Source: Giardia muris
Taxonomy: Eukaryota; Fornicata; Diplomonadida; Hexamitidae
Assembly: GCA_006247105.1 (NCBI GenBank)
Contig: CM016925.1
Location: forward strand, 806,001-870,000
Length of the DNA stretch: 64,000 nt
Reading direction: 5' to 3'
Part shown: positions 21,852 through 46,176 of the stretch, piece after piece
How positions within the stretch are numbered: the first letter of the stretch is position 1
Layout of the letters: each line of letters begins with the position of its first letter
Notes under the pieces: generated by a model
Seen by the model: only the letters and a program-made list of their open reading frames with translations
The model's database searches: none
What the model was told of the DNA's origin: nothing
Translations under genes and position numbers: made by a program

Positions 21852-22557
21852 TCTTTTGAAGCCATGGAGAGAGAGGAGAAGGCCAGAATCTGATGGCATG
21901 AAAGGTAGGCTCATGAGTGTCCGCATCGCGTTGAGTCGATAATTATTCCAACGGGTTACAGATGAAGTAGGAAGTGTGAGTAGAAGGGAGAAATCTCCGT
22001 TAGCGCAAATCTGGATGGTGTATGATGTGCTGGAAAAGACTGACTCTTTGGAATCGTGACTCTGACAGTCTAGACGTTGACTTATTTGTACCTACTACCC
22101 TATCAGTTACAGCCACAGACTATAGGCATATCCCAAATTGCTTGAACGCAATAAGTCTCTCCTATTCGCTTTTCCTTGGAGTCTATTGATATTAGTCCTT
22201 ATTTCACATCACAACTCATCGATGAATCAGTATCTGTATTCTCATCGCACTGGAGTCTGTCTCCACTCCTCACAGTGGATGTCCACGCATCTTTCAGAAG
22301 CACGCTGACCGTGGCAGCCTGGCCATATCGATCCCCCCATGATACCAGTACTGCAGAACGAGCTTCTCCGGGCCTAGATAACTATAGTGGCGGCCTGCAC
22401 AAACACTCGGTGTCTAAGTGTGCTAGCTCCGATCCCAGTGGTATAGCCTCCTAGAGCGACAAGCTGATGGAGTCAGACGGGCCTGTTGGAGAAGGACACA
22501 GCCCAGAGTGAGTGGTCACCACAAGTCTGTCTTCTGGCAGATGACGCAGAAAAAGAT
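21852..22557. other. Gene-free outer end of left arm (706 bp)
   Basis: The sequence from the arm boundary to the peroxiredoxin start holds no convincing gene. The longest open frame (22176-22454, 92 codons) has no family resemblance and its composition is not like neighbouring genes. It is richer in A/T than the rest of the arm and probably carries the peroxiredoxin promoter near its right end (cgcagaaaaagat just before the ATG). Confidence 0.5.
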
Positions 22558-23163
22558 ATGCCCGTCCCTCTCCCTGGCACGCCCTGCCCCGACTTCGAGG
22601 TCTCCGTCCTCACCCCGTCGATGAAGTTCGAGACACGCCGTCTCAAGGACTACGCGGGGAAGTACCTCGTCGTCTTCTTCTACCCACTCGACTTCACCTT
22701 CGTCTGCCCCTCGGAGATCATCCACTTCGCGGAGCTCTCGACCTTCCTCCGCAGCAAGTGCAACGCCGAGATCATCATCGGCTCGACGGACTCCGTCTAC
22801 AGCCACTACGCGTGGTGCCTCCAGGGCCACGAGGAGGGCGGGATTGGGGCCTGCAAGTGCGACCTCTTCGCCGACACGAACCATAAGATGGCCCGCGACT
22901 TTGGTGTGCTGATTGAGGATCAGGGCATTGCTCTTCGCGGGCTCTTCATCGTTTCCGACAAGGGACTCATCCGTCACGTCTGCATCAACGACCTCCCTGT
23001 CGGCCGCTCTATCGAGGAGTGCAAGCGCCTCGTCCAGGCATTCCAGTATGCTGACAAGACTGGAGGCGTCATCCCTTGTGGCTGGACTCCCGAGAACAGC
23101 GCGACGATCAACCCGGACCCCGAGAAGAAGAAGGAGTACTTCTCGAAGGCCTTCAAGAAGTGA
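22558..23163 (+). CDS. Typical 2-Cys peroxiredoxin, left-arm copy
   Basis: I choose the ATG at 22558 (201 aa, M-P-V-P-L-P-G) over the one at 22486, because it follows an A-rich stretch and gives the usual family length. The enzyme reduces hydrogen peroxide and organic peroxides with thioredoxin-type electrons, central in an organism without catalase. The peroxidatic site is F-T-F-V-C-P-S-E. The G-G-I-G loop and the C-terminal K-E-Y-F-S-K (YF motif) mark the over-oxidation-sensitive class. The resolving Cys region reads G-G-V-I-P-C-G-W where the family usually has V-C-P-A-x-W, so the Cys is displaced by two positions. An AGTAAA signal lies 21 bp after the stop. The right-arm copy is identical. 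Confidence 0.92.
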   Translation: MPVPLPGTPCPDFEVSVLTPSMKFETRRLKDYAGKYLVVFFYPLDFTFVCPSEIIHFAELSTFLRSKCNAEIIIGSTDSVYSHYAWCLQGHEEGGIGACKCDLFADTNHKMARDFGVLIEDQGIALRGLFIVSDKGLIRHVCINDLPVGRSIEECKRLVQAFQYADKTGGVIPCGWTPENSATINPDPEKKKEYFSKAFKK

Positions 23164-23184
23164 GAGGTATCCCTGACAGTCGGG

Positions 23185-23190
23185 AGTAAA
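23185..23190 (+). terminator. Polyadenylation signal AGTAAA (peroxiredoxin)
   Basis: AGTAAA fits the Giardia polyadenylation consensus AGTRAA and starts 21 bp after the peroxiredoxin stop. The mirror copy is at 44838-44843 on the minus strand. Confidence 0.6.
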
Positions 23191-23594
23191 CCCCGAACAA
23201 GCCCTGGAGGGCGCTTTGATCGTAGGCCTCCTCCATGAGTGACTCCCCCAGGACGGTAATGGAACGACCGAAGCCTCTACAGGGCGGTCCGTTCACTCGA
23301 GAGCGGGTCGTAGTCCTGGAGCCCCCCGCGCTCCGAGTGCTTGGGAAAGTCCTTCGTCCTGCACTCCCCGTTGATGAGGCCTTGCAGTGTCCTCGCCTCA
23401 GTCGGATGTCCTCTGGGACGCTCTGAAGGCCACTGGTCGAGAGACGAATCATCCCAGGAGTCTAGATCTGGGGCTGGGAGGCTCGAAAGGAAGTGGGATG
23501 GCTGGTTCTGGGAGGAAGATTCTATGTCATATCAGGTCGGGAAGAGGTGGGGCAGGTCTCTGGAAAGGGGATAAGGAAATAACGCCTCAGAGGC
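23191..23594. other. Gene-free stretch, probably decayed sequence
   Basis: About 400 bp of GC-rich sequence between the peroxiredoxin and the ankyrin pseudogene. Short open frames on both strands have no recognisable domain. One minus-strand frame includes G-G-L-Q-D-Y-D-P-L-S and may be an old gene remnant, but I cannot name it. Mirrored at 44434-44837. Confidence 0.4.
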
Positions 23595-23952
23595 GTCCTT
23601 CACTGGGTTATCGATGATGCCCGGAAGAGGAGATCTCAAGCCTGTGAAGGAGAACATTGATGATACTGGGAAGAAGGATAACGAGGGATGGAGGCTGCCC
23701 ACCATAGTAAGATGGACTGTGTTCAGCTCCTCCTCTCTGAGGCGAGGAAGTGGTAGACAAAGGAACGGGATGAATCCCACTTCGGAGCGACCGCTCTCAT
23801 GTGCAGCCCGTCAGCATTGGCCTGAGAACCCCCAACGTTCCTTCCCCCACGAAAAGGGAGTGGAAGGCTCTGAAGGGCGCACAGCCAAGTGGTACGCGAA
23901 CAACGGCGACCCAAGGGGAGGAGCTTTCACCCGGGCTCACAAACTCCTCTAG
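23595..23952 (+). pseudogene. Ankyrin-repeat gene remnant, left arm
   Basis: This stretch aligns with the intact ankyrin gene at 33386-33865. The start (gggttatcgatgatgcccgg, then ggagatctcaagcc) matches that gene's D-L-M-K-A-A-K-K-G-D-L, the middle shares the run ctcctcctctctgaggcgag, and the end reads E-G-R-T-A-K-W-Y-A-N-N-G against E-G-H-T-A-K-W-H-A-N-K-G. Frameshifts destroy the repeats between these blocks (the frame turns to L-R-R-G-S-G-R-Q-R-N), and a TAG ends the final H-K-L-L. It is a decayed paralogue of the Giardia ankyrin ('Protein 21.1'-like) family. One substitution separates the arms here, at 23840. Confidence 0.75.
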
Positions 23953-24023
23953 AACGAGGGCACAAGGCATATTCTCCTCCCATCGAATCCTACCGAGATG
24001 TTGAGGTCCTTGGAGCGCGTTAA

Positions 24024-25325
24024 CAAACCGGTATTGAGGACGGATCTCTCAAGAAGGGAGTTGCCCAAGAATGCCAAGGGAAAACAGAAGAGAAACTCTC
24101 TCAATTGAATCGGGAAGTCTCCTCACTCAAACAGCAGCTCGACAATGCTATCGATGAGTCCAAGAGGCATGCAAAGATGTGCGAGGACCTTCGGAAGGCC
24201 TCCGATCAGAAACAAGCCCTCATCAACGCCCTCACCACCGAGAAGGGGACCCTTCAGGAGCAGCTCTCCAAGACCACTGAGGACCTCAAGAGAGCACTTG
24301 CAGACCAGAAGGCCCAGAACCTCGCCCTCGAGAAGGAGGTTACCCAATTGAGGACCGAGAGCCATGACATGAAAGACCTTCAGAGACGCCTCGAGGAGGT
24401 GGAGGAGGAGAAGAAGGCCCTCCTCCAGAACCTCGCTGCTGTCGGGGGCAGGCTTCCCCCTGCACGGGAGGACAGCTCTCTCATCTCATCTGCCATCCAG
24501 GGAGACCTCAGCACACTCCGAAGGCATCTCGACCAGGCAGGACAGAAGGACTCCTCAGGCATGACGGCCCTGATGCACGCCGCCTCCCGAGGCCAGACCG
24601 AGGTCGTCCGCCTCCTTCGACCCCTCGAGGCCCACCTCCAGGACGGGAGGGGATGGACGGCCCTGATGCATGCAGTGGGGGGAGGACACGAGGAGTGTGT
24701 CGGCCTCCTCCTCCTGGAGAGGGACCTGAAGGACGGGGAGGGCAGGACGGCAGAGGACGTCGCCAACGGCCTTCCCGACGGGGAGAGGAGGAGGATCACA
24801 CCTCTCCTCAGAAAGAAGGTCCAGCTCCCCGACCTTCCCGATGAGCTCTCGTCCTTCCAGCTTACGGGGAGGCTCGGAAGGGGGGCCTTCGGGACCGTCT
24901 TCTCCGCCTGGTCCGAGGAGCACGGGAACTGCGCCCTGAAGGTCGTCGAGTACGAGGAGATGGAGAGGACGATCGTCGACTCCCTCCGAAGGGAGATGGG
25001 GACCATTCCCTCCCTCAAGCACCCCCACGTCCTCCGCTACCACCGGGTGCACGACGACCCGGACAACGGGACCGCCTACCTCGTGATGGAGTGGTGCTCC
25101 GGGACGCTCCTCGACGAGGTCCGGGGGCGCGGGGAGAGGAGAGAGCCCTTCAGGGACGATGAGGTGTGGAGATGCCTTCGGGAGATGGCGAGCGGTCTTG
25201 CCTACCTCCACGAGAAGAGGTATGTTCATAGAGACCTGAAGCCGGAGAACGTCCTCCTCTCCTATTATGGTTTCATTGGCCTTGGAGTATTGATATGTGA
25301 TACGCGGCATGTTCCTGTTGCTTGA
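24024..25325 (+). pseudogene. Coiled-coil/ankyrin/protein-kinase gene, broken at both ends (left arm)
   Basis: The open frame runs from just after a stop at 24021 to a TGA at 25323. No ATG precedes the coiled coil; the first in-frame ATG lies inside it (K-M-C-E-D). Order of parts: coiled coil (about 95 residues), two ankyrin repeats (S-G-M-T-A-L-M-H-A-A and G-W-T-A-L-M-H-A-V), then a kinase domain with G-R-G-A-F-G-T-V, the A-L-K-V-V Lys and H-R-D-L-K-P-E-N. The kinase stops right after the catalytic loop. The D-F-G magnesium motif and the whole activation segment are missing, replaced by unrelated residues and a stop, so it cannot phosphorylate. Giardia NEK-like kinases usually carry ankyrins after the kinase, so this order is unusual. 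Seven substitutions between arms fall here, six of them changing residues. Confidence 0.8.
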
Positions 25326-25418
25326 AAGATGGAATAGGTCTCCGAGTGGTCGCAGGACAACGTAAGCAGAGACAGTCCCCGAATCCGGGTGGACTGCCAC
25401 AGTAGACACATCTCCGAA

Positions 25419-26786
25419 ATGCTTTGGTTTGTGACCATTTGTGCAGCCTCACTTGTTGAGGCCTATGCCCGTGGAGAGCGTGAGTACAACGAGCTGACGT
25501 CTGCAGGTCCGGACGACGCCTGCTTCGCATCTCTCGGCCTGGACCTCAGAGAGATCTGCCCCCAGGTACTGGAAAGTGAGGGCGACGATGTGATACATCA
25601 GTATGCTGCCCTGCGTCTGACCAGCTGTTACCTCGAACTCACCGGACTCTCCCCTGTTCGGTGCTGCCCCCGTCGTCCCGGAAGAGCTTCCAAGCTTCGG
25701 GCATGTATCCGTACACTGGGCAAGGAGGAGGGAGGCACTGGGGTTGCGGTCTTCGTGCACCAGCTCGGTCGCATCTTTGATCTTTGCGTCTACCTCGAGG
25801 CATCGGCCTTCCAGCGACGTTCAGCGTCGGCTTCTCGTGACCTCCTGGCCTCATCCGAGCGTGCACATGATGCCTTGATTACATTGCAACAGACTGCGCA
25901 TAGCACACTCGAGGAGCTCTCCGCCCAAAGCTCTAATCTCCAGGCGTTGATCGAAGCTCTATCCGACTTGGCCCTGCATGCGGTCACTGCACAGGAGCAA
26001 TTGGGGAAGAGGATGGAGACACTAGATACGGCACTGTCGAGTCAGACGGCAAGTCTCCAAAAAGGTCTGAACGATGCCCTCGTCGCCCAGGAGTCTGTCA
26101 TAGCCCGGGTTGGTGCTCTGGTAGAAAGTCTCGAGGCCCGTCTGGACATCATACACGAGTCGCTCAACGTCACTGCCGATACTGTGAGGCACGTGTCGGA
26201 TGAGCTTGAGATAGCGGGAGGAAGGCTGTCCGGGATCGCTGCTTCCACAAATACTCTTCAAGGGGCAGTCGAGACGCTTACAGAGGAGGTCGAACGTCAT
26301 TCAGTCTACGTTGCTGAGGTGCACAAAGAGCAGCAAGCCTCGTCCGAAGCACTTTCAGCGGCCCTGGAGTCAGTCGAGCACCAAGCAAGACAGCAGACCG
26401 CTGCCCTGATCGCAGTTGGAGAGGCCGTGGAGAGGGTTACGACGATCGGCTTCCGCCCCTTCCACATCCTCGGCCTTCTCGAGAAGCGAGCTCCAGGCGG
26501 GGTCGTCTGGCATCTAGGCGGATATGTCGTGGCCCGTGCCTCTTCAGCCCTCTGTCACTCAGGAGATTCCGTCTCACTCGCCGCTCTCTTCTGCGCGACG
26601 TACCTCGTTGAGTATGCAGTCGGTAGCGGCGGAGCCCTTCTGGCATCATGCGTACCGCGCCCAGACGTCCTTGTTGCTGTGACACGTGGTCTGCAGTATC
26701 TGATACGTGCCCTGTCTATCCTTCCTATTATCCTCCCCCTCTTCCCGGCATACCACACCAAGAGAGCATCGAGGAAAGGGCGGTGA
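25419..26786 (+). CDS. Probable GEX1/KAR5/Brambleberry nuclear-fusion protein, left-arm copy
   Basis: The frame opens with GTG at 25389, but the first ATG (25419) gives a 455-aa protein with a good signal peptide (M-L-W-F-V-T-I-C-A-A-S-L-V-E-A-Y-A). A Cys-rich domain follows with Cys at 35, 47, 70, 82 and 83, in the pattern C-x11-C-x22-C-x11-C and with A-A-L-R-L-T-S-C before G. Next come L-C-V-Y-L-E-A-S-A-F-Q-R, a coiled coil of about 220 residues, and two or three hydrophobic spans near the C-terminus (S-L-A-A-L-F-C-A-T-Y-L-V-E-Y-A). Signal, Cys-rich domain, coil and C-terminal spans is the layout of GEX1/KAR5/Brambleberry, nuclear-envelope proteins needed for karyogamy. The Cys spacing and the L-T-x-C and A-T-Y-L-V-E stretches are what I rely on; the function is inferred. 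Arm copies are identical. Confidence 0.7.
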   Translation: MLWFVTICAASLVEAYARGEREYNELTSAGPDDACFASLGLDLREICPQVLESEGDDVIHQYAALRLTSCYLELTGLSPVRCCPRRPGRASKLRACIRTLGKEEGGTGVAVFVHQLGRIFDLCVYLEASAFQRRSASASRDLLASSERAHDALITLQQTAHSTLEELSAQSSNLQALIEALSDLALHAVTAQEQLGKRMETLDTALSSQTASLQKGLNDALVAQESVIARVGALVESLEARLDIIHESLNVTADTVRHVSDELEIAGGRLSGIAASTNTLQGAVETLTEEVERHSVYVAEVHKEQQASSEALSAALESVEHQARQQTAALIAVGEAVERVTTIGFRPFHILGLLEKRAPGGVVWHLGGYVVARASSALCHSGDSVSLAALFCATYLVEYAVGSGGALLASCVPRPDVLVAVTRGLQYLIRALSILPIILPLFPAYHTKRASRKGR

Positions 26787-27266
26787 CGAAGTCCGTTCAT
26801 AGATCAAGAGCTCGTAACGCCCGGGCCAGCGACTCGTCCTCTGACGGAGTCCGGATGGAGGCGAGGTCCACGAACGAGGGGATCTGGTCAGGGCTGTATC
26901 GTCGGAACTCGTCTGGAGTAGCCGCGAGTGGCGAGACGAGTTGTCCGTGTAAGGCATCCTCGGTTGGGCGCCTTGTGGGGAAGGGGTCTCTGGGAAGTAC
27001 TTTTTGCCTCCTCATGGATGGAAGGTCAGGAGCATCGTAGGAATACAGACTCGATGATGCAGAATCCACGGGGGATGAAGTCTTGAGGGCAGGGGGCCAG
27101 TGAGACTCTTTCTTTTGTACATCGAGCCCCAGTTCTGGCCTCTCTTGCCTCTTTCAGAGGTTGGGGTGTCTTCTCAGAAGATCCTGGCCACATCGTACTC
27201 TGCACGCCCTCACCCAATTATCGCTAGTTCGGCTATCGATAGAGTGTATCCCTCGATTAAAAGAAG
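26787..27266. other. Gene-free stretch between the GEX1-like and quinone reductase genes
   Basis: About 480 bp with no supported gene. The open frames are short and do not resemble any family. An A-rich tract (ttaaaagaag) sits just before the quinone reductase ATG and is the likely initiator. Mirrored at 40762-41241. Confidence 0.5.
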
Positions 27267-27761
27267 ATGCGCATCGTCCTCTACTACTCCCACCTGGCCG
27301 AGCCTGTGAGCGTCGTCAACGCCCCTCTGATCGAGGAGGCGAAGAAGCTCCCCAACGTCCAGGTCCGTTGGCTCGACTCTCTCTACCCCTCCTTCCGTCT
27401 GACCCCCGAACAGATTGCTGCCGAGCAGAAGATCATCGAGGGTGCTGACGCGGTCTTCTTCCAGTTTCCAGTCCACTGGTTCTCCTGCCCTGCAATGCTC
27501 AAGAGCTTCATCGATTCGGTCTTCGCCTATGGGTGGGCCTACGGGACAGGAGAGGCGTTACGTGGAAAGAAGTACCGCGTGATCATGACGACCGGTGGGA
27601 ACTCTAAGAGCTATTCTGGAGAGTTCACGATCAACGATCTCGCAAAGCCCTTCATCACCTCCGCGAAGTATTGCAGCATGGAGCCACTGCCTTTCCACGT
27701 GATCTACTCCGACAGTCCGAGTGAGGGCCGTGTGGAGAAGTACCTCTCCCTCTTCAAGTGA
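27267..27761 (+). CDS. NAD(P)H quinone reductase, flavodoxin fold, left-arm copy
   Basis: The 164-aa protein begins M-R-I-V-L-Y-Y-S-H (phosphate-loop strand of the flavodoxin-like fold). It contains F-F-Q-F-P-V-H-W-F-S-C-P-A-M-L-K and the M-T-T-G-G-N loop, both flavin-contacting segments of the KefF/MdaB/DT-diaphorase family. Such enzymes use FMN or FAD to pass two electrons from NAD(P)H to quinones, avoiding semiquinone radicals. Giardia quinone reductases resemble bacterial ones and have been discussed as laterally acquired; I infer the same may hold here. The stop codon lies within an AGTGAA polyadenylation signal (27757-27762). The right-arm copy is identical. Together with the peroxiredoxin it gives each arm two oxygen-defence genes. 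Confidence 0.85.
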   Translation: MRIVLYYSHLAEPVSVVNAPLIEEAKKLPNVQVRWLDSLYPSFRLTPEQIAAEQKIIEGADAVFFQFPVHWFSCPAMLKSFIDSVFAYGWAYGTGEALRGKKYRVIMTTGGNSKSYSGEFTINDLAKPFITSAKYCSMEPLPFHVIYSDSPSEGRVEKYLSLFK

Positions 27762-27762
27762 A
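27757..27762 (+). terminator. Polyadenylation signal AGTGAA overlapping the stop
   Basis: The last Lys codon and TGA stop of the quinone reductase gene spell a-AGTGAA-t, matching AGTRAA. The mirror is at 40266-40271. Confidence 0.6.
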
Positions 27763-28124
27763 TCCTCCTGGAGCGGGGTCGGCATCGAGGTCCTCTAGTG
27801 TGGAGTGCTCAGAGAGGGGAGGATCATCTCCAGTCTTCTCTGAAGGGCGGGAACGAACAGGACCGATGGAACAGCAGTCCAGAGCTCTCATCAACGGCCT
27901 GACATCCCTGGGTGGCTGTGGAGTGGGCCGCATCATCGACTCGTCAACCTCCAAACGACCTCGAGGCACCTCTGGAGATACAGGCACCCGGGTGCAGACG
28001 GGACGAGTCAGTTCGGGGGCTGGCCCTTGCCCTCCAATGGAGCCCGGACGACCCGCAATGCTCGGGACGATCGACCGCTCCTCCGGGAGAGCAGCATCGG
28101 AGATCGACGTCCTCGAGGGCTCGA

Positions 28125-29262
28125 TGGAGGTGAAAGCTCGAGATGCGGGAGCATGTGAGACAGGTTCGACCTTCACCATCCCGGGGGTTGAGGGGACGTT
28201 CTGCAAGAAGTGTTCGGCTGATGCTGAGGCCCCGATCAATGGGAAGTGTGGGGCGACTACTGCTGTCACGGATGCTGAATGCGCCAATGGTGTCTGTACA
28301 AAGTGTGGAGACTCAAGTACGGACTACTTCCTCTTCTATGGTGGGTGCTACAAGACGGACACCTCTCCCGGGAACAAGCTCTGCAAGACCGTGGTTGCTG
28401 GGAAGTGCACCGATCTCCAGGATAACTCTCCCGCCTTCATCAAGAGTGAGGTTCTCTACCTCTGCAGTGACACCTCAGAAGATGCAGGAGGAAAAGAGAA
28501 CTGCGGTACATGCACCTATGCGGCCCCAACTCCAGGAGGGAACTCAGGTGGAAACGGAGGTTCGACCACCTCCCGTAACGGAGAGGTCTTCACCTGCAAG
28601 TCCTGCCTTCCCGGCTTTGGCCTTGTTGGAGAGACTGGCAAGACCTGCAAGGCCTGTACCATCCAGAACTGCAAGACGTGCGACACGGACGAGAAGACCT
28701 GCAAGGTCTGCCTCCCCTCCTTCGGCCCGACCTACAGCTCCTCCCTTGCCATCACGTCCTGCGACTCCTGTCCCAAGAACTGCACCTCCTGCACCAACCT
28801 CGGTCCGGGGCTCGTCTGCACCGAGTGTCAGACTGATCAGGCCCCGATCGACGGGGGGTGTGTTCCTGCAAACGAGACCACCAAGAAGGTCTGCGCCGAC
28901 TCCTCCGGCTCCTGCACGTCCTGCCTCAATGGATACGTCCCCTACCTCGAGGGATGCTACTCGACCTTCAAGGCCGCCGAGCTGGGCGTCTGTGCGAAGG
29001 AGAAGCAGTTCCTGGTCGGGAACACGACGGTCTGCTCCGAGTGCAAGCCGGGCTTCGTCCCGATCAACGGAGAGTGCTTCCCGGTCGCCTCGACGAGCGT
29101 GACGAGGGCGACCCAGATCTGCCAGAAGGAGGACGGAACCGCCCTCGATGCGTCCTCCACGAGGTGCGGGAAGTGCCAGGACGTGACCGGGACCCCGGCT
29201 ACTCAGTTCTTCCTCCTCAACGGGGGCTGCTACAACGTCTCCTCGGAAATCAAGATGGCATC
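28125..29262 (+). pseudogene. VSP gene fragment without ends, left arm
   Basis: The open frame covers about 375 residues of typical VSP sequence: many CxxC pairs (C-K-K-C, C-T-K-C, C-K-S-C, C-K-A-C, C-K-T-C, C-D-S-C), Gly-Gly-Cys-Tyr blocks (F-L-L-N-G-G-C-Y) and F-V-P-I-N-G. No signal peptide precedes it; the wider frame begins at a GTG inside unrelated sequence. Homology stops after N-G-G-C-Y-N-V-S-S, with no membrane span or C-R-G-K tail. As it stands it cannot make a surface VSP, but it could serve as a silent donor for gene conversion of the full VSP 2 kb downstream, with which it shares modules. Five substitutions between arms cluster in 47 bp of its Gly/Ser linker. Edges are approximate; 27763-28124 holds nothing I recognise. 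Confidence 0.8.
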
Positions 29263-31210
29263 TTCTTTAGGGAGTCCGGGATGCTTCCCCATAGGGGAGA
29301 TGGGGGTTGATCACACCTCCCGTTTCCCGGCCGGCTCTGGGAGGGAGCCAGCAGACAGGACCCCCGCTCCTTGGCTCGGTGGGCCCTGGGCGTTCTAGTC
29401 AGAGAAGTGGCGGGAGATGCTTCCAGTCGACCGGGGGCTGGAGGCTCTTTCGACAAGAAGGCCGATGTGCTTGGAGCCCTTCGGTCATCCTCCTCAGAGA
29501 AGGGAGAGGGGAAGACTCGCTCCGGGATGTCCGAGGGAGGGGATGGTGGGGGCTCGTCCACGTTGGTGATAGCAGTCCATTCGATCGGCCCCTCCCCGAG
29601 CAGCTGGTGGGCTCAGGCCGGGGAGCTGTGTGATTATCCCGCTCTCCTGAGGTGTCCAGGAACAACAGAACGGACCGGGACGTCCTGGATGAGCAGGCCC
29701 GAACCATGAGCATCGATCTGGCCCTCGACCTGTCAAGGAACGACGCACCATCCTTTCGGAGAGCCCCGGTGGGACGCACATCTGACGCCGTTCCTCGTTG
29801 GTTAGAAGCCGGGGGAGCCATGACCACTCAGAAGGACTCCTGCCTGTGGCTTCGAGCGGAGCATAACTGCCGGGATCTGTCCCTCACGACCTGAAGCCGC
29901 CCCGGGCGTGGCTAATCTCCTCTCGATGGCCGGTGTACGATACCCCGGAGGTAAGGACAGTCGAGCAGTCCCTTGGGCCCGGGGTTGCACGATGAAGTCC
30001 TCCACAAGCGACCTCTTGGCCTCCCCTGTTTCCCCCTCCTCGTCTTTGTAGTCACAGAGAGGGTAGAAGGTCTGCATGGCCTGGGGCCGAGCCATCGGGG
30101 AGTAGAAGGATGCTTCTGACTTCTCGGTACGCAGAGGAGGCTGCAGGAACCGGCCACCAAAGAGCCCGCAAGTCGTAGGCCAGGCCGGCCCCGGAGGATC
30201 GTGTCGACTGGGCGCTTCTTGTTGGACTGCACGACCGCCCAATGGGACTTCCTGGGCGTCTTCGGAACCCCCCTGCCCCTCGGTTCTCTGTGGTCCAGGA
30301 CGTCCTGCTGGCCCCCACGATCCGAGCTGGGATGACCGCTGACCTCAGAGGCGTGGGATGTCTGGACGGAAGCACAGCATTGAGGAAACCTTCGACCGGT
30401 CTCCTTTCGGACTGGGAGACGAGCAACGGGGCAACTACGGGGTCTTCCGGGCCGACTGGAAGCGATGAAGTCTGTCCTTCAGAGTGGAGTCAGTGGCATA
30501 CGAGCCCTCTAACGTCCCAGACCATCAGCCCCGAAGACGAGGACCGAGCCTTCGTCTGAGCATCGTCGTCGGTCCAGTCCTGACCGAGTACGCCAAGGAT
30601 ACTGCCTCCCTGTGCAGTCCCCAGGCGGATCGATGCCCAGGACGTTCCTCCACCAGAGGCGTCTTGAGGCATGCGAGACTGCTCAGGACTTCCGGATGCT
30701 GCGAGTCTCCTGTCAGGGATCGGCACGCCATCTCAACTATCAGCCGTGCTCCTCGTCCACCAGCGTGGTCCTGGACTGGTCCACGTAGCACTCGCACAAG
30801 TGGAGCCGGGACAACCAGGGTGCTGGTAGAGTTGTCCAGTGCCGAGGGATGTGATCACATGCTCCCCGTCGAAGCGGACCCCCGGGCCCTGTCATGGCCG
30901 GACTTGTCCCTGAGGGCAGACGACCACATGAGGTCATGAACCTGCCTGCAGAACGGCCTCTCCCCTCAACTCAAAGGCGTCCGATGTCCTCCAGATCCAC
31001 GGGGGGAGTGAGTCCAGGACGGGGGATGGGCCTTCGGACTATTCCCAAGTCGGATCTGTCCCGTCCTGCGGGATGTCCCTTCCCCCTTGACAATACCGTG
31101 ACCCCTCTGGACGACCTCGAACGCCTCTTCCCACATCCCGACAGTCCTTCTGAGCCCTCTGTCCGGCACCAGCACATCCCGGAACCCCGCTTCGACCCTC
31201 TACCGGTAGA
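29263..31210. other. 1.9-kb gene-free GC-rich stretch, left arm
   Basis: Frames are open on both strands because of the base composition, but none starts well or shows a family signature. A minus-strand piece near 30000-30100 (C-D-Y-K-D-E-E-G-E-T-G-E-A-K-R) looks somewhat protein-like and may be a remnant. The right end supplies the VSP upstream region; the start context is taga-ATGTT, close to the initiator reported for Giardia VSP genes. Mirrored at 36818-38765. Confidence 0.4.
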
Positions 31211-33001: not shown

Positions 33002-33006
33002 GTGAA
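33001..33006 (+). terminator. Polyadenylation signal AGTGAA at the VSP stop
   Basis: AGTGAA begins on the last base of the VSP stop codon. The inverted repeat ends three bases later (33009). The mirror copy is at 35022-35027. Confidence 0.65.
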
Positions 33007-33009
33007 TGG

Positions 33010-33865: not shown

Positions 33866-34141
33866 CAAGAGTCATACCCCATTGGAGTATACGACCTCTA
33901 TAAATAGTAACTGTGCTCAGACGATTCCTAATAGGGCCTGTGAGTCATATGGGATGGGTTTCCCAGAAGGAGCGCAGAGAGACGACTGATCCAAGGAAAG
34001 CTCCTCCAGTGACGAGAGCACCCCAAGTGAACGAGCCAAGGAGGCCTCAATCAGCGCCCCAAAGAGAAGTGTAGGCCTCTCGTCATCGGGGTGGGAAGGA
34101 TGTCCTCAGTCTGATGAGGGTCGATGCTTGATTATCAGACA

Positions 34142-34932: not shown

Positions 34933-35021
34933 CCATATGACCCCCTCTCCGTCCATCCAGATGAGCTGGAGGTCTATAATGAGCTCGATGTCACCTCTCG
35001 CTCCAGGTCTCCCCTTCACCA

Positions 35022-35027
35022 TTCACT
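35022..35027 (-). terminator. Polyadenylation signal AGTGAA, right VSP
   Basis: Mirror of 33001-33006. It overlaps the right VSP stop by one base and lies three bases from the inner repeat boundary. Confidence 0.65.
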
Positions 35028-38765: not shown

Positions 38766-39903
38766 GATGCCATCTTGATTTCCGAGGAGACGTTGTAGCA
38801 GCCCCCGTTGAGGAGGAAGAACTGAGTAGCCGGGGTCCCGGTCACGTCCTGGCACTTCCCGCACCTCGTGGAGGACGCATCGAGGGCGGTTCCGTCCTCC
38901 TTCTGGCAGATCTGGGTCGCCCTCGTCACGCTCGTCGAGGCGACCGGGAAGCACTCTCCGTTGATCGGGACGAAGCCCGGCTTGCACTCGGAGCAGACCG
39001 TCGTGTTCCCGACCAGGAACTGCTTCTCCTTCGCACAGACGCCCAGCTCGGCGGCCTTGAAGGTCGAGTAGCATCCCTCGAGGTAGGGGACGTATCCATT
39101 GAGGCAGGACGTGCAGGAGCCGGAGGAGTCGGCGCAGACCTTCTTGGTGGTCTCGTTTGCAGGAACACACCCCCCGTCGATCGGGGCCTGATCAGTCTGA
39201 CACTCGGTGCAGACGAGCCCCGGACCGAGGTTGGTGCAGGAGGTGCAGTTCTTGGGACAGGAGTCGCAGGACGTGATGGCAAGGGAGGAGCTGTAGGTCG
39301 GGCCGAAGGAGGGGAGGCAGACCTTGCAGGTCTTCTCGTCCGTGTCGCACGTCTTGCAGTTCTGGATGGTACAGGCCTTGCAGGTCTTGCCAGTCTCTCC
39401 AACAAGGCCAAAGCCGGGAAGGCAGGACTTGCAGGTGAAGACCTCTCCGGCACGGGAGGTGGTCGAACCTCCGTTTCCACCTGACCTCCCTCCTGTAGTT
39501 GGGGCCGCATAGGTGCATGTACCGCAGTTCTCTTTTCCTCCTGCATCTTCTGAGGTGTCACTGCAGAGGTAGAGAACCTCACTCTTGATGAAGGCGGGAG
39601 AGTTATCCTGGAGATCGGTGCACTTCCCAGCAACCACGGTCTTGCAGAGCTTGTTCCCGGGAGAGGTGTCCGTCTTGTAGCACCCACCATAGAAGAGGAA
39701 GTAGTCCGTACTTGAGTCTCCACACTTTGTACAGACACCATTGGCGCATTCAGCATCCGTGACAGCAGTAGTCGCCCCACACTTCCCATTGATCGGGGCC
39801 TCAGCATCAGCCGAACACTTCTTGCAGAACGTCCCCTCAACCCCCGGGATGGTGAAGGTCGAACCTGTCTCACATGCTCCCGCATCTCGAGCTTTCACCT
39901 CCA
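38766..39903 (-). pseudogene. VSP gene fragment without ends, right arm
   Basis: Counterpart of 28125-29262, also lacking signal peptide, membrane span and tail. Compared with the left copy its linker reads T-T-G-G-R-S-G-G and S-R-A-G-E where the left has T-P-G-G-N-S-G-G and S-R-N-G-E; all three codon changes alter the residue. The Cys framework is the same in both arms. Edges are approximate. Confidence 0.8.
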
Positions 39904-40266
39904 TCGAGCCCTCGAGGACGTCGATCTCCGATGCTGCTCTCCCGGAGGAGCGGTCGATCGTCCCGAGCATTGCGGGTCGTCCGGGCTCCATTGGAGGGCA
40001 AGGGCCAGCCCCCGAACTGACTCGTCCCGTCTGCACCCGGGTGCCTGTATCTCCAGAGGTGCCTCGAGGTCGTTTGGAGGTTGACGAGTCGATGATGCGG
40101 CCCACTCCACAGCCACCCAGGGATGTCAGGCCGTTGATGAGAGCTCTGGACTGCTGTTCCATCGGTCCTGTTCGTTCCCGCCCTTCAGAGAAGACTGGAG
40201 ATGATCCTCCCCTCTCTGAGCACTCCACACTAGAGGACCTCGATGCCGACCCCGCTCCAGGAGGAT

Positions 40267-40761
40267 TCACTTGAAGAGGGAGAGGTACTTCTCCACACGG
40301 CCCTCACTCGGACTGTCGGAGTAGATCACGTGGAAAGGCAGTGGCTCCATGCTGCAATACTTCGCGGAGGTGATGAAGGGCTTTGCGAGATCGTTGATCG
40401 TGAACTCTCCAGAATAGCTCTTAGAGTTCCCACCGGTCGTCATGATCACGCGGTACTTCTTTCCACGTAACGCCTCTCCTGTCCCGTAGGCCCACCCATA
40501 GGCGAAGACCGAATCGATGAAGCTCTTGAGCATTGCAGGGCAGGAGAACCAGTGGACTGGAAACTGGAAGAAGACCGCGTCAGCACCCTCGATGATCTTC
40601 TGCTCGGCAGCAATCTGTTCGGGGGTCAGACGGAAGGAGGGGTAGAGAGAGTCGAGCCAACGGACCTGGACGTTGGGGAGCTTCTTCGCCTCCTCGATCA
40701 GAGGGGCGTTGACGACGCTCACAGGCTCGGCCAGGTGGGAGTAGTAGAGGACGATGCGCAT
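40267..40761 (-). CDS. NAD(P)H quinone reductase, right-arm copy
   Basis: Identical to the 164-aa flavodoxin-fold enzyme at 27267-27761, including the AGTGAA signal over the stop (40266-40271). Two identical copies would double dosage; no sign of decay is seen in either. Its neighbours in the arm are the GEX1-like gene (upstream) and the VSP fragment (downstream). Confidence 0.85.
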   Translation of the reverse strand: MRIVLYYSHLAEPVSVVNAPLIEEAKKLPNVQVRWLDSLYPSFRLTPEQIAAEQKIIEGADAVFFQFPVHWFSCPAMLKSFIDSVFAYGWAYGTGEALRGKKYRVIMTTGGNSKSYSGEFTINDLAKPFITSAKYCSMEPLPFHVIYSDSPSEGRVEKYLSLFK

Positions 40762-41241
40762 CTTCTTTTAATCGAGGGATACACTCTATCGATAGCCGAA
40801 CTAGCGATAATTGGGTGAGGGCGTGCAGAGTACGATGTGGCCAGGATCTTCTGAGAAGACACCCCAACCTCTGAAAGAGGCAAGAGAGGCCAGAACTGGG
40901 GCTCGATGTACAAAAGAAAGAGTCTCACTGGCCCCCTGCCCTCAAGACTTCATCCCCCGTGGATTCTGCATCATCGAGTCTGTATTCCTACGATGCTCCT
41001 GACCTTCCATCCATGAGGAGGCAAAAAGTACTTCCCAGAGACCCCTTCCCCACAAGGCGCCCAACCGAGGATGCCTTACACGGACAACTCGTCTCGCCAC
41101 TCGCGGCTACTCCAGACGAGTTCCGACGATACAGCCCTGACCAGATCCCCTCGTTCGTGGACCTCGCCTCCATCCGGACTCCGTCAGAGGACGAGTCGCT
41201 GGCCCGGGCGTTACGAGCTCTTGATCTATGAACGGACTTCG
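40762..41241. other. Gene-free stretch, right arm
   Basis: Mirror of 26787-27266. I see nothing beyond the A-rich initiator next to the quinone reductase start. Confidence 0.5.
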
Positions 41242-42609
41242 TCACCGCCCTTTCCTCGATGCTCTCTTGGTGTGGTATGCCGGGAAGAGGGGGAGGATAA
41301 TAGGAAGGATAGACAGGGCACGTATCAGATACTGCAGACCACGTGTCACAGCAACAAGGACGTCTGGGCGCGGTACGCATGATGCCAGAAGGGCTCCGCC
41401 GCTACCGACTGCATACTCAACGAGGTACGTCGCGCAGAAGAGAGCGGCGAGTGAGACGGAATCTCCTGAGTGACAGAGGGCTGAAGAGGCACGGGCCACG
41501 ACATATCCGCCTAGATGCCAGACGACCCCGCCTGGAGCTCGCTTCTCGAGAAGGCCGAGGATGTGGAAGGGGCGGAAGCCGATCGTCGTAACCCTCTCCA
41601 CGGCCTCTCCAACTGCGATCAGGGCAGCGGTCTGCTGTCTTGCTTGGTGCTCGACTGACTCCAGGGCCGCTGAAAGTGCTTCGGACGAGGCTTGCTGCTC
41701 TTTGTGCACCTCAGCAACGTAGACTGAATGACGTTCGACCTCCTCTGTAAGCGTCTCGACTGCCCCTTGAAGAGTATTTGTGGAAGCAGCGATCCCGGAC
41801 AGCCTTCCTCCCGCTATCTCAAGCTCATCCGACACGTGCCTCACAGTATCGGCAGTGACGTTGAGCGACTCGTGTATGATGTCCAGACGGGCCTCGAGAC
41901 TTTCTACCAGAGCACCAACCCGGGCTATGACAGACTCCTGGGCGACGAGGGCATCGTTCAGACCTTTTTGGAGACTTGCCGTCTGACTCGACAGTGCCGT
42001 ATCTAGTGTCTCCATCCTCTTCCCCAATTGCTCCTGTGCAGTGACCGCATGCAGGGCCAAGTCGGATAGAGCTTCGATCAACGCCTGGAGATTAGAGCTT
42101 TGGGCGGAGAGCTCCTCGAGTGTGCTATGCGCAGTCTGTTGCAATGTAATCAAGGCATCATGTGCACGCTCGGATGAGGCCAGGAGGTCACGAGAAGCCG
42201 ACGCTGAACGTCGCTGGAAGGCCGATGCCTCGAGGTAGACGCAAAGATCAAAGATGCGACCGAGCTGGTGCACGAAGACCGCAACCCCAGTGCCTCCCTC
42301 CTCCTTGCCCAGTGTACGGATACATGCCCGAAGCTTGGAAGCTCTTCCGGGACGACGGGGGCAGCACCGAACAGGGGAGAGTCCGGTGAGTTCGAGGTAA
42401 CAGCTGGTCAGACGCAGGGCAGCATACTGATGTATCACATCGTCGCCCTCACTTTCCAGTACCTGGGGGCAGATCTCTCTGAGGTCCAGGCCGAGAGATG
42501 CGAAGCAGGCGTCGTCCGGACCTGCAGACGTCAGCTCGTTGTACTCACGCTCTCCACGGGCATAGGCCTCAACAAGTGAGGCTGCACAAATGGTCACAAA
42601 CCAAAGCAT
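41242..42609 (-). CDS. Probable GEX1/KAR5/Brambleberry nuclear-fusion protein, right-arm copy
   Basis: Identical to the 455-aa protein at 25419-26786: signal peptide, Cys-rich domain (Cys 35, 47, 70, 82, 83), long coiled coil and C-terminal hydrophobic spans. The preferred ATG ends at 42609; a longer GTG-initiated frame reaches 42639 but would spoil the signal peptide. Giardia has two nuclei that fuse or exchange material in the cyst (diplomixis), and a GEX1-type protein would be a natural candidate for the membrane step; this is inference from the family alone. Confidence 0.7.
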   Translation of the reverse strand: MLWFVTICAASLVEAYARGEREYNELTSAGPDDACFASLGLDLREICPQVLESEGDDVIHQYAALRLTSCYLELTGLSPVRCCPRRPGRASKLRACIRTLGKEEGGTGVAVFVHQLGRIFDLCVYLEASAFQRRSASASRDLLASSERAHDALITLQQTAHSTLEELSAQSSNLQALIEALSDLALHAVTAQEQLGKRMETLDTALSSQTASLQKGLNDALVAQESVIARVGALVESLEARLDIIHESLNVTADTVRHVSDELEIAGGRLSGIAASTNTLQGAVETLTEEVERHSVYVAEVHKEQQASSEALSAALESVEHQARQQTAALIAVGEAVERVTTIGFRPFHILGLLEKRAPGGVVWHLGGYVVARASSALCHSGDSVSLAALFCATYLVEYAVGSGGALLASCVPRPDVLVAVTRGLQYLIRALSILPIILPLFPAYHTKRASRKGR

Positions 42610-42702
42610 TTCGGAGATGTGTCTACTGTGGCAGTCCACCCGGATTCGGGGACTGTCTCTGCTTACGTTGTCCTGCGACCACTCGGAGACCTATTCCATC
42701 TT

Positions 42703-44004
42703 TCAAGCAACAGGAACATGCCGCGTATCACATATCAATACTCCAAGGCCAATGAAACCATAATAGGAGAGGAGGACGTTCTCCGGCTTCAGGTCTCTAT
42801 GAACATACCTCTTCTCGTGGAGGTAGGCAAGACCGCTCGCCATCTCCCGAAGGCATCTCCACACCTCATCGTCCCTGAAGGGCTCTCTCCTCTCCCCGCG
42901 CCCCCGGACCTCGTCGAGGAGCGTCCCGGAGCACCACTCCATCACGAGGTAGGCGGTCCCGTTGTCCGGGTCGTCGTGCACCCGGTGGTAGCGGAGGACG
43001 TGGGGGTGCTCGAGGGAGGGGATGGTCCCCATCTCCCTTCGGAGGGAGTCGACGATCGTCCTCTCCATCTCCTCGTACTCGACGACCTTCAAGGCGCAGT
43101 TCCCGTGCTCCTCGGACCAGGCGGAGAAGACGGTCCCGAAGGCCCCCCTTCCGATCTTCCCCGTAAGCTGGAAGGATGAGAGCTCATCGGGAAGGTCGGG
43201 GAGCTGGACCTTCTTTCTGAGGAGAGGTGTGATCCTCCTCCTCTCCCCGTCGGGAAGGCCGTTGGCGACGTCCTCTGCCGTCCTGCCCTCCCCGTCCTTC
43301 AGGTCCCTCTCCAGGAGGAGGAGGCCGACACACTCCTCGTGTCCTCCCCCCACTGCATGCATCAGGGCCGTCCATCCCCTCCCGTCCTGGAGGTGGGCCT
43401 CGAGGGGTCGAAGGAGGCGGACGACCTCGGTCTGGCCTCGGGAGGCGGCGTGCATCAGGGCCGTCATGCCTGAGGAGTCCTTCTGTCCTGCCTGGTCGAG
43501 GTGCCTTCGGAGTGTGTTGAGGTCTCCCTGGATGGCAGATGAGATGAGAGAGCTGTCCTCCCGTGCAGGGGGAAGCCTGCCCCCGACAGCAGCGAGGTTC
43601 TGGAGGAGGGCCTTCTTCTCCTCCTCCACCTCCTCGAGGCGTCTCTGAAGGTCTTTCATGTCATGGCTCTCGGTCCTCAATTGGGTAACCTCCTTCTCGA
43701 GGGCGATGTTCTGGGTCTTCTGGTCTGCAAGTGCTCTCTTGAGGTCCTCAGTGGTCTTGGAGAGCTGCTCCTGAAGGGTCCCCTTCTCGGTGGTGAGGGC
43801 GTTGATGAGGGCTTGTTTCTGATCGGAGGCCTTCCGAAGGTCCTCGCACATCTTTGCATGCCTCTTGGACTCATCGATAGCATTGTCGAGCTGCTGTTTG
43901 AGTGAGGAGACTTCCCGATTCAATTGAGAGAGTTTCTCTTCTGTTTTCCCTTGGCATTCTTGGGCAACTCCCTTCTTGAGAGATCCGTCCTCAATACCGG
44001 TTTG
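42703..44004 (-). pseudogene. Coiled-coil/ankyrin/protein-kinase gene, broken at both ends (right arm)
   Basis: Counterpart of 24024-25325 with the same missing start and the same truncation after H-R-D-L-K-P-E-N, so both breaks predate the arm duplication or have been copied between arms. It differs from the left copy at six residues: A to T, L to I, S to N, R to K, L to I and K to E (left to right). The Gly-rich loop context reads T-G-K-I-G-R-G-A-F here, closer to the usual kinase consensus than the left copy's T-G-R-L-G-R-G-A-F. Confidence 0.8.
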
Positions 44005-44075
44005 TTAACGCGCTCCAAGGACCTCAACATCTCGGTAGGATTCGATGGGAGGAGAATATGCCTTGTGCCCTCGTT

Positions 44076-44433
44076 CTAGAGGAGTTTGTGAGCCCGGGTG
44101 AAAGCTCCTCCCCTTGGGTCGCCGTTGTTCGCGTACCACTTGGCTGTGCGCCCTTCAGAGCCTTCCACTCCCTTTTCGTGGGGGAAGAAACGTTGGGGGT
44201 TCTCAGGCCAATGCTGACGGGCTGCACATGAGAGCGGTCGCTCCGAAGTGGGATTCATCCCGTTCCTTTGTCTACCACTTCCTCGCCTCAGAGAGGAGGA
44301 GCTGAACACAGTCCATCTTACTATGGTGGGCAGCCTCCATCCCTCGTTATCCTTCTTCCCAGTATCATCAATGTTCTCCTTCACAGGCTTGAGATCTCCT
44401 CTTCCGGGCATCATCGATAACCCAGTGAAGGAC
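44076..44433 (-). pseudogene. Ankyrin-repeat gene remnant, right arm
   Basis: Counterpart of 23595-23952 with the same frameshifts. One base differs (44188; Q-R-F-F-P-H here, Q-R-S-F-P-H on the left). The adjacent 44434-44837 is gene-free. Confidence 0.75.
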
Positions 44434-44864
44434 GCCTCTGAGGCGTTATTTCCTTATCCCCTTTCCAGAGACCTGCCCCACCTCTTCCCGACCTGATATG
44501 ACATAGAATCTTCCTCCCAGAACCAGCCATCCCACTTCCTTTCGAGCCTCCCAGCCCCAGATCTAGACTCCTGGGATGATTCGTCTCTCGACCAGTGGCC
44601 TTCAGAGCGTCCCAGAGGACATCCGACTGAGGCGAGGACACTGCAAGGCCTCATCAACGGGGAGTGCAGGACGAAGGACTTTCCCAAGCACTCGGAGCGC
44701 GGGGGGCTCCAGGACTACGACCCGCTCTCGAGTGAACGGACCGCCCTGTAGAGGCTTCGGTCGTTCCATTACCGTCCTGGGGGAGTCACTCATGGAGGAG
44801 GCCTACGATCAAAGCGCCCTCCAGGGCTTGTTCGGGGTTTACTCCCGACTGTCAGGGATACCTC

Positions 44865-45470
44865 TCACTTCTTGAAGGCCTTCGAGAAGTACTCCTTCTT
44901 CTTCTCGGGGTCCGGGTTGATCGTCGCGCTGTTCTCGGGAGTCCAGCCACAAGGGATGACGCCTCCAGTCTTGTCAGCATACTGGAATGCCTGGACGAGG
45001 CGCTTGCACTCCTCGATAGAGCGGCCGACAGGGAGGTCGTTGATGCAGACGTGACGGATGAGTCCCTTGTCGGAAACGATGAAGAGCCCGCGAAGAGCAA
45101 TGCCCTGATCCTCAATCAGCACACCAAAGTCGCGGGCCATCTTATGGTTCGTGTCGGCGAAGAGGTCGCACTTGCAGGCCCCAATCCCGCCCTCCTCGTG
45201 GCCCTGGAGGCACCACGCGTAGTGGCTGTAGACGGAGTCCGTCGAGCCGATGATGATCTCGGCGTTGCACTTGCTGCGGAGGAAGGTCGAGAGCTCCGCG
45301 AAGTGGATGATCTCCGAGGGGCAGACGAAGGTGAAGTCGAGTGGGTAGAAGAAGACGACGAGGTACTTCCCCGCGTAGTCCTTGAGACGGCGTGTCTCGA
45401 ACTTCATCGACGGGGTGAGGACGGAGACCTCGAAGTCGGGGCAGGGCGTGCCAGGGAGAGGGACGGGCAT
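44865..45470 (-). CDS. Typical 2-Cys peroxiredoxin, right-arm copy
   Basis: Identical to the 201-aa enzyme at 22558-23163. The ATG ending at 45470 is preferred over 45542. Peroxidatic site F-T-F-V-C-P, G-G-I-G and Y-F motifs are present, and the resolving Cys is again in I-P-C-G-W. The AGTAAA signal is at 44838-44843 on the minus strand. Confidence 0.92.
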   Translation of the reverse strand: MPVPLPGTPCPDFEVSVLTPSMKFETRRLKDYAGKYLVVFFYPLDFTFVCPSEIIHFAELSTFLRSKCNAEIIIGSTDSVYSHYAWCLQGHEEGGIGACKCDLFADTNHKMARDFGVLIEDQGIALRGLFIVSDKGLIRHVCINDLPVGRSIEECKRLVQAFQYADKTGGVIPCGWTPENSATINPDPEKKKEYFSKAFKK

Positions 45471-46176
45471 ATCTTTTTCTGCGTCATCTGCCAGAAGACA
45501 GACTTGTGGTGACCACTCACTCTGGGCTGTGTCCTTCTCCAACAGGCCCGTCTGACTCCATCAGCTTGTCGCTCTAGGAGGCTATACCACTGGGATCGGA
45601 GCTAGCACACTTAGACACCGAGTGTTTGTGCAGGCCGCCACTATAGTTATCTAGGCCCGGAGAAGCTCGTTCTGCAGTACTGGTATCATGGGGGGATCGA
45701 TATGGCCAGGCTGCCACGGTCAGCGTGCTTCTGAAAGATGCGTGGACATCCACTGTGAGGAGTGGAGACAGACTCCAGTGCGATGAGAATACAGATACTG
45801 ATTCATCGATGAGTTGTGATGTGAAATAAGGACTAATATCAATAGACTCCAAGGAAAAGCGAATAGGAGAGACTTATTGCGTTCAAGCAATTTGGGATAT
45901 GCCTATAGTCTGTGGCTGTAACTGATAGGGTAGTAGGTACAAATAAGTCAACGTCTAGACTGTCAGAGTCACGATTCCAAAGAGTCAGTCTTTTCCAGCA
46001 CATCATACACCATCCAGATTTGCGCTAACGGAGATTTCTCCCTTCTACTCACACTTCCTACTTCATCTGTAACCCGTTGGAATAATTATCGACTCAACGC
46101 GATGCGGACACTCATGAGCCTACCTTTCATGCCATCAGATTCTGGCCTTCTCCTCTCTCTCCATGGCTTCAAAAGA
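45471..46176. other. Gene-free outer end of right arm
   Basis: Mirror of 21852-22557; no supported gene. The arm ends at 46176, after which AT-rich unique sequence begins. Confidence 0.5.

What the first reader, a model, noticed from the sequence alone, without database searches (positions are those of the whole stretch)
21852..46176. Giant near-perfect inverted repeat with two facing VSP genes
Two arms of 11158 bp pair base for base without an indel and with only 14 substitutions found, around a 2009-bp spacer. Each arm holds two antioxidant genes, a candidate karyogamy gene, three pseudogenes and a VSP. Such identity over 11 kb with zero indels means either a very recent duplication or continuing arm-to-arm gene conversion, as in sex-chromosome palindromes. 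Recombination between arms would invert the spacer.
Basis: partly seen in the sequence, partly recalled or inferred. Interest (0 to 1): 0.9.

Follow-up and report, generated by a model that had tools for sequence, protein, structure and literature searches.

The report
Palindrome of twin Giardia surface genes
A mouse parasite, Giardia muris, carries a 24-kilobase DNA palindrome with two facing copies of a surface-antigen gene, and comparison with sister palindromes in the same genome suggests that the two halves keep being copied onto each other rather than being a single fresh duplication.

Summary
The genome is Giardia muris; the VSP pair is already listed among its identical inverted pairs (Xu et al. 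2020, Table 3), but I saw no account there of the palindrome, its length or its cause. Five other VSP pairs measured here are palindromes too (arms from at least 3.0 to at least 9.4 kb, 0-15 differences, no indels). The best evidence on cause comes from two of them, on chromosomes 1 and 4, with the same inner arm end and a homologous spacer: of 4,661 aligned arm sites, 293 group the arms by locus and none group them across loci. Arms of a locus therefore stayed alike, or were remade alike, after the loci diverged. Arm-to-arm gene conversion explains this best; for the window itself this is partly by analogy. Arm differences are clustered; one left-arm patch lies in a perfect 479-bp match to a chromosome-end VSP-like sequence. 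New: a 1,777-bp identical direct repeat (EGF-domain gene) flanks the palindrome. What it is for is unproven.

The parts
19985..21761 (+). Left copy of a 1,777-bp direct repeat: EGF-domain (tenascin-like, name recalled) gene, ORF 20032-21774
   Evidence: 100% identical to 46776-48552; only two copies found in the genome; Pfam EGF_2
21762..21848 (.). 87-bp AT-rich stretch between direct repeat and left arm (35.6% GC)
21849..33009 (+). Left palindrome arm, 11,161 bp
22558..23163 (+). Peroxiredoxin gene (mirror copy 44865-45470)
   Evidence: Pfam AhpC-TSA and 1-cysPrx_C; no residue differs between arms
24177..25325 (+). Ankyrin + truncated protein-kinase (NEK-type by PMC7641422) ORF; mirror 42703-43851; differs at 6 residues between arms
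24312..25017 (+). Patch 1: 10 of the 18 arm differences (mirror 43011-43716)
25419..26786 (+). 455-aa protein of unknown function (mirror 41242-42609)
   Evidence: no Pfam family above cut-off; only G. muris GMRT_20199 found
27267..27761 (+). Flavodoxin-like oxidoreductase (mirror 40267-40761)
   Evidence: Pfam Flavodoxin_2
27866..29398 (+). VSP-like ORF, probably a pseudo-VSP (mirror 38630-40162)
   Evidence: Pfam VSP; near-identical stretches at chromosome ends
28532..28578 (+). Patch 2: 5 arm differences in 47 bp (mirror 39450-39496); left arm equals C2:2370150-2371400 over 28430-28908
29301..31382 (+). VSP upstream region plus VSP start, shared with three other measured palindromes at 3.9-4.6% substitutions
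31211..33001 (+). VSP gene, 596 aa, left copy; tail reads GCRRK
33010..35018 (+). Spacer: psi-ARP-2 (ankyrin ORF 33386-33865; RING-finger 3' end within 34327-35018)
   Evidence: named psi-ARP-2 in PMC7641422 Table 3
35019..46179 (-). Right palindrome arm, 11,161 bp
35027..36817 (-). VSP gene, 596 aa, right copy; tail reads GCRGK
46180..46775 (.). 596-bp AT-rich stretch, no second copy found in the genome, between right arm and right direct repeat (36.7% GC)
46776..48552 (+). Right copy of the 1,777-bp direct repeat: EGF-domain gene, ORF 46823-48565

Best explanation
This is one of a set of VSP palindromes in Giardia muris, each holding two near-identical surface-antigen genes in opposite directions. 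Shown: the arm structure at six loci; that two palindromes on different chromosomes share arm end and spacer, and that three share their centre junctions; that arms of one locus are far more alike than the loci are. Inferred: the arms are kept alike by arm-to-arm gene conversion. Inferred too: patches copied in from dispersed relatives (chromosome-end VSP-like sequences, ankyrin/kinase genes) first land in one arm and are later erased or copied to the other. The arms contain segments known from elsewhere in the genome, and probably some local flank, so they seem to have grown beyond the VSP. The flanking 1.8-kb direct repeat offers a second way to rearrange the locus, deletion of the whole palindrome. 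Whether the pairing serves the parasite (keeping intact VSPs alive) or is a by-product is not settled.
For: (1) P3 (C1:2370209-2386500) and P7 (C4:953148-975000) share the same inner arm end and a homologous spacer (31 substitutions in about 1,052 sites of the part of P7's spacer that was fetched, 2.9%). Of 4,661 ungapped sites in the shared part of the arms, 293 have both arms of a locus alike and the loci different, 0 support either cross-locus pairing of arms, and 21 are odd in one arm. (2) The window, C1:1965 and C2:1192 share both centre junctions. The last two differ at 43 of 1,617 spacer sites (2.66%), yet their arms differ at 1 of 9,059 and 0 of the 3,043 fetched. (3) A 2.1-kb VSP upstream region differs by 0/2082, 0/2109, 0/2095 and 4/2102 within four loci but 3.9-4.6% between them. 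(4) Arm differences are clustered: the observed number of neighbour gaps <=200 bp was reached in 0, 2 and 3 of 20,000 uniform simulations for the window, P3 and P7. C1:1965 and P4 have one difference each and cannot be tested. (5) In patch 2 the left arm matches a sequence 28 kb from the chromosome-2 contig end perfectly (121/121; no difference over 28430-28908), while the right arm is closest to two sequences near the chromosome-4 contig end (98%).
Against: No reads and no second strain were available, so neither conversion nor a flip was seen happening. Spacer divergence could be inflated by exchange with other ARP-2 copies: the window's spacer differs from the other two centres by 15.7-15.9%, because its ankyrin middle is only 63-70% alike (about 40% in one further alignment window) and looks replaced. 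A centre copied into a new locus, followed by later rebuilding of arms, could mimic conversion. Outside the centre the window's arm shares with C1:1965 only 2,118 bp at 93.9%, 637 bp at 95.1% and shorter pieces, and with C2:1192 only the VSP tail (278 bp, 80.6%) and pieces of about 100 bp or less. The strongest test (P3/P7) therefore applies to the window by analogy.
Confidence: 0.72

Rival explanations
1. Very recent inverted duplication at each locus, with no continuing conversion (the view that Adam et al. 2010 favoured for G. lamblia identical pairs).
For: Near-zero arm divergence with no indels; the outermost arm parts are low in GC like the flanks at three of the four loci profiled (window, C1:1965, P3; not P4), as if recently recruited; the 1,777-bp direct repeat is 100% identical.
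Against: Needs separate recent events at each of six measured loci; P3 and P7 share arm end and spacer yet show 293 locus-type sites and 0 cross-locus sites; three loci share both centre junctions; differences are clustered, not scattered, at the three loci where this could be tested.
Confidence: 0.15
2. Assembly artefact: fold-back or wrongly duplicated arms.
For: HGAP assembly of PacBio RS II reads with Illumina correction (PMC7641422, passage); arms of 11 kb may be long for such reads (recalled); no read data here.
Against: Outer flanks differ on the two sides, and the repeat outside the arms is direct, not inverted, which a fold-back read cannot give; the arms carry 18 differences in patches with relatives elsewhere; the locus lies inside a 2.82-Mb contig; five other VSP pairs show the same architecture; G. 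lamblia has identical inverted pairs too (PMC2996952).
Confidence: 0.07
3. RNA hairpin locus: read-through across the short spacer makes VSP sense-antisense RNA that feeds Dicer and silences VSPs in trans, and selection for pairing keeps the arms alike.
For: Tail-to-tail near-identical genes with a 2,025-bp gap; Giardia lamblia small RNAs repress VSPs (PMC3937270, abstract read).
Against: Pairing extends over ordinary genes far beyond the VSP; two published pairs are head-to-head (PMC7641422), P4 here being one; no RNA data could be examined.
Confidence: 0.06

Closest known systems
Identical inverted vsp pairs of Giardia lamblia WB (Adam et al. 2010, PMC2996952; section 14 and passages read)
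   Same: Two identical VSP genes head-to-head or tail-to-tail, separated by 2-4 kb, with abrupt ends of identity (14 pairs).
   Different: In the parts read it gives divergence points 139-729 bp from the genes and no long arms, favours duplication and transposition, possibly recent, and calls the pairs cryptic. Here arms reach 11 kb, include ordinary genes, and a test favours conversion.
VSP pairs of G. muris (Xu et al. 2020, PMC7641422; sections 6, 9, 12, 14 and passages read)
   Same: Table 3 row 1 is this very pair (596 aa, 2,025 bp apart, psi-ARP-2 between). The paper also proposes exchange between VSPs and pseudo-VSPs, and its Fig. 1 plots matches over 95% and 1 kb.
   Different: In what I read it gives no arm lengths, no arm comparison, no flanking direct repeat and no arm-to-arm conversion ('palindrom' occurs 0 times in the main text). 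Figures and supplements were not seen.
Primate Y-chromosome palindromes, e.g. human P6 (PMC3723533, passages read)
   Same: Arms kept above 99.9% alike by gene conversion; spacer inversion occurs but is rare.
   Different: Sex chromosome; conversion counted across 378 Y chromosomes of known phylogeny. Here ordinary chromosomes of a protist and only one genome.
Inverted gene pairs of Caenorhabditis (Zhao et al. 2007, PMC1803023, passages read)
   Same: Inverted-repeat structure more conserved than its sequence; convergent and divergent gene pairs; gene conversion proposed.
   Different: Shown with orthologous loci in three species; here with paralogous palindromes in one genome; not antigen genes.

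Membership tests
Giardia VSP (variant-specific surface protein) | VSP Pfam domain, Cys-rich CXXC repeats, signal peptide-like N-terminus, membrane segment, conserved tail GCRGK in G. muris | tested here: met
   PF03302 E=1.4e-32 for the left copy; translations show CXXC repeats and tail GCRGK in the right copy, GCRRK in the left. Signal peptide and membrane segment judged by eye only.
Identical inverted vsp pair | Two identical VSP ORFs in opposite orientation a few kb apart | tested here: met
   One amino-acid difference in 596, so near-identical; tail-to-tail, 2,025 bp between stops; matches PMC7641422 Table 3 row 1
Palindrome maintained by arm-to-arm gene conversion | Arms near-identical (over 99%) | tested here: met
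   99.84% over 11,161 bp, no indel
Palindrome maintained by arm-to-arm gene conversion | Palindrome older than arm divergence: paralogous or orthologous palindromes with shared ends | tested here: inconclusive
   Met for P3/P7 (293 vs 0 vs 0 sites); for the window itself only the centre junctions are shared with two other palindromes
Palindrome maintained by arm-to-arm gene conversion | Conversion events seen among individuals or strains | not testable with these tools
   Only one genome held (no relatives)
Palindrome maintained by arm-to-arm gene conversion | GC-biased conversion | tested here: inconclusive
   Arms richer in GC than flanks at 4 of 4 loci profiled, but the resident gene families may be GC-rich anyway

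The most novel reading that the evidence does not exclude
Giardia VSP palindromes work as two-copy renewal sites: one arm is rewritten in patches from silent chromosome-end pseudo-VSPs and other relatives while the twin keeps an intact master, and arm-to-arm conversion then fixes or erases the change. This would keep a small set of intact antigen genes both whole and renewable. It would also explain why the identical VSP genes reported for G. lamblia WB were all in inverted pairs.
Probability: 0.3. Interest if true: 0.8.

Novelty: new variant of a known kind. Interest (0 to 1): 0.6.

Why it matters
Identical inverted VSP pairs have been known in Giardia for years and were called cryptic, with duplication, possibly recent, as the favoured cause (PMC2996952). 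The G. muris genome offers paralogous palindromes with shared ends, which turn that question into a countable test, and the count favours copying between arms. If confirmed, it points to a way of preserving and renewing antigen genes other than expression switching, in a genus where, in the words of a paper on G. [quoted passage not shown] It also warns that VSP loci may differ between isolates by spacer flips and by loss of whole palindromes.

Tried and rejected
Fold-back artefact: rejected as unlikely because the flanks differ, the outer repeat is direct, and arm differences match relatives elsewhere. Uniform scatter of arm differences: rejected. The window's whole spacer as a clock: dropped, because its ankyrin middle is 63-70% like the other centres (about 40% in one further window) while most of the rest is 84-98%, so it looks replaced. 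GC-biased conversion: looked at, left inconclusive because of confounding with gene family. C2:896 as a further palindrome: rejected; it has one VSP end, the psi-ARP-2 and no second VSP at the far side of it; one 375-bp inverted match was the only one of 100 bp or more in the 20 kb fetched. Karyogamy gene: no support. Solved structures for the VSP: none found by sequence. Literature: eight searches. One search (Giardia + 'vsp genes' + 'inverted repeat') found 0 papers, (Giardia muris + palindrom) one unrelated paper, (Giardia + tail-to-tail + vsp) two, of which PMC3610916 was not opened. PMC11169602 was searched by term and said nothing on VSP pairs in the passages shown. Subscription papers are mostly not in that library. 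Origin of the direct repeat: circle integration, template switching and tandem duplication before insertion were considered; no shared bases beyond the repeat ends, undecided.
Full report
WHAT IS THERE. The window is base 806,001-870,000 of a 2.82-Mb contig in a 9.74-Mb genome of 52 contigs. A protein of the left arm is 99% identical to GMRT_20199 of Giardia muris, and the VSP pair fits row 1 of Table 3 of Xu et al. 2020 in size, orientation, gap (2,025 bp) and spacer content. The inverted repeat is confirmed: arms 21849-33009 and 35019-46179, 11,161 bp, no indels, spacer 2,009 bp. Outside both ends the printed 300 positions look unpaired.

Just outside the palindrome lies a 1,777-bp direct repeat without a single difference (19985-21761 and 46776-48552). 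It holds an EGF-domain gene of which only these two copies were found in the genome. Between repeat and arm are 87 bp on the left and 596 bp on the right, at 35.6% and 36.7% GC; 0 of 537 half-overlapping flank windows of 596 bp around four palindromes were as low as the 596-bp stretch. That stretch has no second copy found in the genome. The left gene copy departs from the right one 13 bp before its stop. Order is therefore left flank, EGF gene, palindrome, EGF gene, right flank, as if 25 kb had been inserted with a duplicated gene. Recombination between the two gene copies would remove the palindrome cleanly (inference).

CONTENTS. Each arm carries a peroxiredoxin, a truncated ankyrin/kinase ORF, a 455-aa protein without a recognised family, a flavodoxin-like protein, a VSP-like ORF and the VSP. 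The spacer is the psi-ARP-2 of the paper; Pfam finds ankyrin repeats and a RING finger in its pieces. The arm is a mosaic: several stretches recur elsewhere at 93-99% identity, among them the 1,138-bp peroxiredoxin stretch twice more on the same chromosome in mirror arrangement and a 3.7-kb stretch on chromosome 4 (a capped list).

A GENOME-WIDE ARCHITECTURE. Table 3 of the paper has eight rows. I measured six, including the window; the assignment of the other five to rows rests on chromosome, orientation and gap, by my own arithmetic. They are the C1:1965 pair (arms 9,059 bp, 1 difference), the C1:2370-2386 pair P3 (6,575 bp, 15), the head-to-head C2:587-603 pair P4 (5,795 bp, 1), the C4:953-975 pair P7 (at least 9,402 bp, 12) and the C2:1189-1197 pair (at least 3,043 bp, 0), all without indels. 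The outer ends of the last two are limited by the stretch fetched. The chromosome-5 pair was not fetched; three pairs of hits there lie mirror-symmetric about one point. The four-copy cluster on chromosome 2 was not measured. A seventh fetched place, C2:896, has the same centre type as the window but only one VSP and no palindrome. At C1:1965, P3 and P4, with about 20 kb of flank each side, no direct repeat over 200 bp brackets the palindrome (P4 has one 77% direct match of 286 aligned bases between spacer and arm). P7 and C2:1192 could not be checked for this.

RECENT DUPLICATION OR CONVERSION. P3 and P7 lie on different contigs taken as chromosomes 1 and 4. They share the same inner arm end and a homologous spacer with 31 substitutions in about 1,052 compared sites; about a third of P7's spacer was fetched. 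Without later copying between arms, arms of one locus should be at least as different as the loci are. Over 4,661 ungapped sites of the four arms, 293 have the two arms of each locus alike and the loci different, 0 have either cross-locus pattern, and 21 are odd in one arm; columns with a gap in only one of the pair are 0, 0 and 72 for P3 arms, P7 arms and P3 against P7. Outside the VSP the counts are 14/2614 and 7/2612 within loci against 97/2609 and 108/2609 between. A second set, the window with C1:1965 and C2:1192, shares both centre junctions. The latter two differ at 43 of 1,617 spacer sites while their arms differ at 1 of 9,059 and 0 of 3,043. The window's spacer differs from these by 250/1589 and 255/1608, mostly in an ankyrin middle that looks replaced. 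The VSP upstream region gives 0 to 0.19% within four loci and 3.9-4.6% between. The simplest account is continuing copying between arms. The alternative, that each locus re-made its palindrome recently from an old centre, still implies copying of one side onto the other, but not repeated conversion.

PATCHES. Of the window's 18 differences, 10 fall in 24312-25017 and 5 in 28532-28578. Neighbour gaps of 200 bp or less exceed uniform expectation in the window, P3 and P7 (0, 2 and 3 of 20,000 simulations reach the observed number). In the second patch the left arm equals a sequence 28 kb from the chromosome-2 contig end (121 of 121), without a difference from 28430 to 28908, whereas the right arm is closest to two sequences near the chromosome-4 contig end at 98%. 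That these are members of the pseudo-VSP arrays is inferred from their position, from the VSP match of the window's own ORF and from the paper; I had no annotation. Both arms match the chromosome-2 copy on either side of the patch, so either arm may be the one that changed. In the first patch, the two relatives held side with the left arm at some sites and the right arm at others, and the best-scoring relatives of the two arms differ. The only VSP change, residue 595, gives the left copy GCRRK instead of the GCRGK tail; three other centres have the G form.

WHAT IS SHOWN AND WHAT IS INFERRED. Shown: anatomy, sister palindromes, locus-wise identity of arms, clustered differences, one-arm match to a chromosome-end VSP-like sequence. 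Inferred: gene conversion as the process, its direction, growth of arms, and any benefit to the parasite. Not shown: read support, spacer flips, loss through the direct repeat, expression.

AGAINST KNOWN WORK. Adam et al. 2010 described 14 identical inverted pairs in G. lamblia, attributed them to gene duplication and transposition, possibly recent, found no identical genes outside such pairs, and called them cryptic. Xu et al. 2020 listed the G. muris pairs and proposed exchange between VSPs and pseudo-VSPs. Arm-to-arm conversion is established for primate Y palindromes (passages) and proposed for Caenorhabditis inverted gene pairs (passages).

Noticed in passing
19985-21761 and 46776-48552: A 1,777-bp direct repeat with 100% identity (EGF-domain gene) brackets the palindrome; origin undecided, deletion of the whole palindrome predicted.
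   Followed up: partly
46180-46775 and 21762-21848: Unusually AT-rich stretches between arms and direct repeats (36.7% and 35.6% GC).
   Followed up: partly
G000 C1:1176047-1187040: Mirror-symmetric hits of the peroxiredoxin segment, with no VSP hit there in the capped lists: perhaps a non-VSP palindrome; similar symmetric hits at C5:124-130 kb, C1:1437-1460 kb and C3:497-503 kb.
   Followed up: no
G000 C1:1596030-1597856: A VSP 98% identical to the palindrome's VSP over its full length, with upstream 95% alike and no second copy nearby in the capped hit lists: possible gene exchange between loci.
   Followed up: no
window 25419-26786: A 455-aa gene without known family; the segment holding it recurs at 99, 98 and 93% at C4:540 kb, C5:61 kb and C1:318 kb.
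   Followed up: partly
window 34327-35018: This 3' end of psi-ARP-2 (RING finger) matches 39 other places at 91-97% (capped list), 31 of them up to the point where the VSP tail begins in the window; at several of these a VSP match starts at the next base: a recurrent ARP-2/VSP convergent pairing.
   Followed up: partly
window 32993: The left VSP copy reads GCRRK at its tail, the right copy GCRGK.
   Followed up: yes
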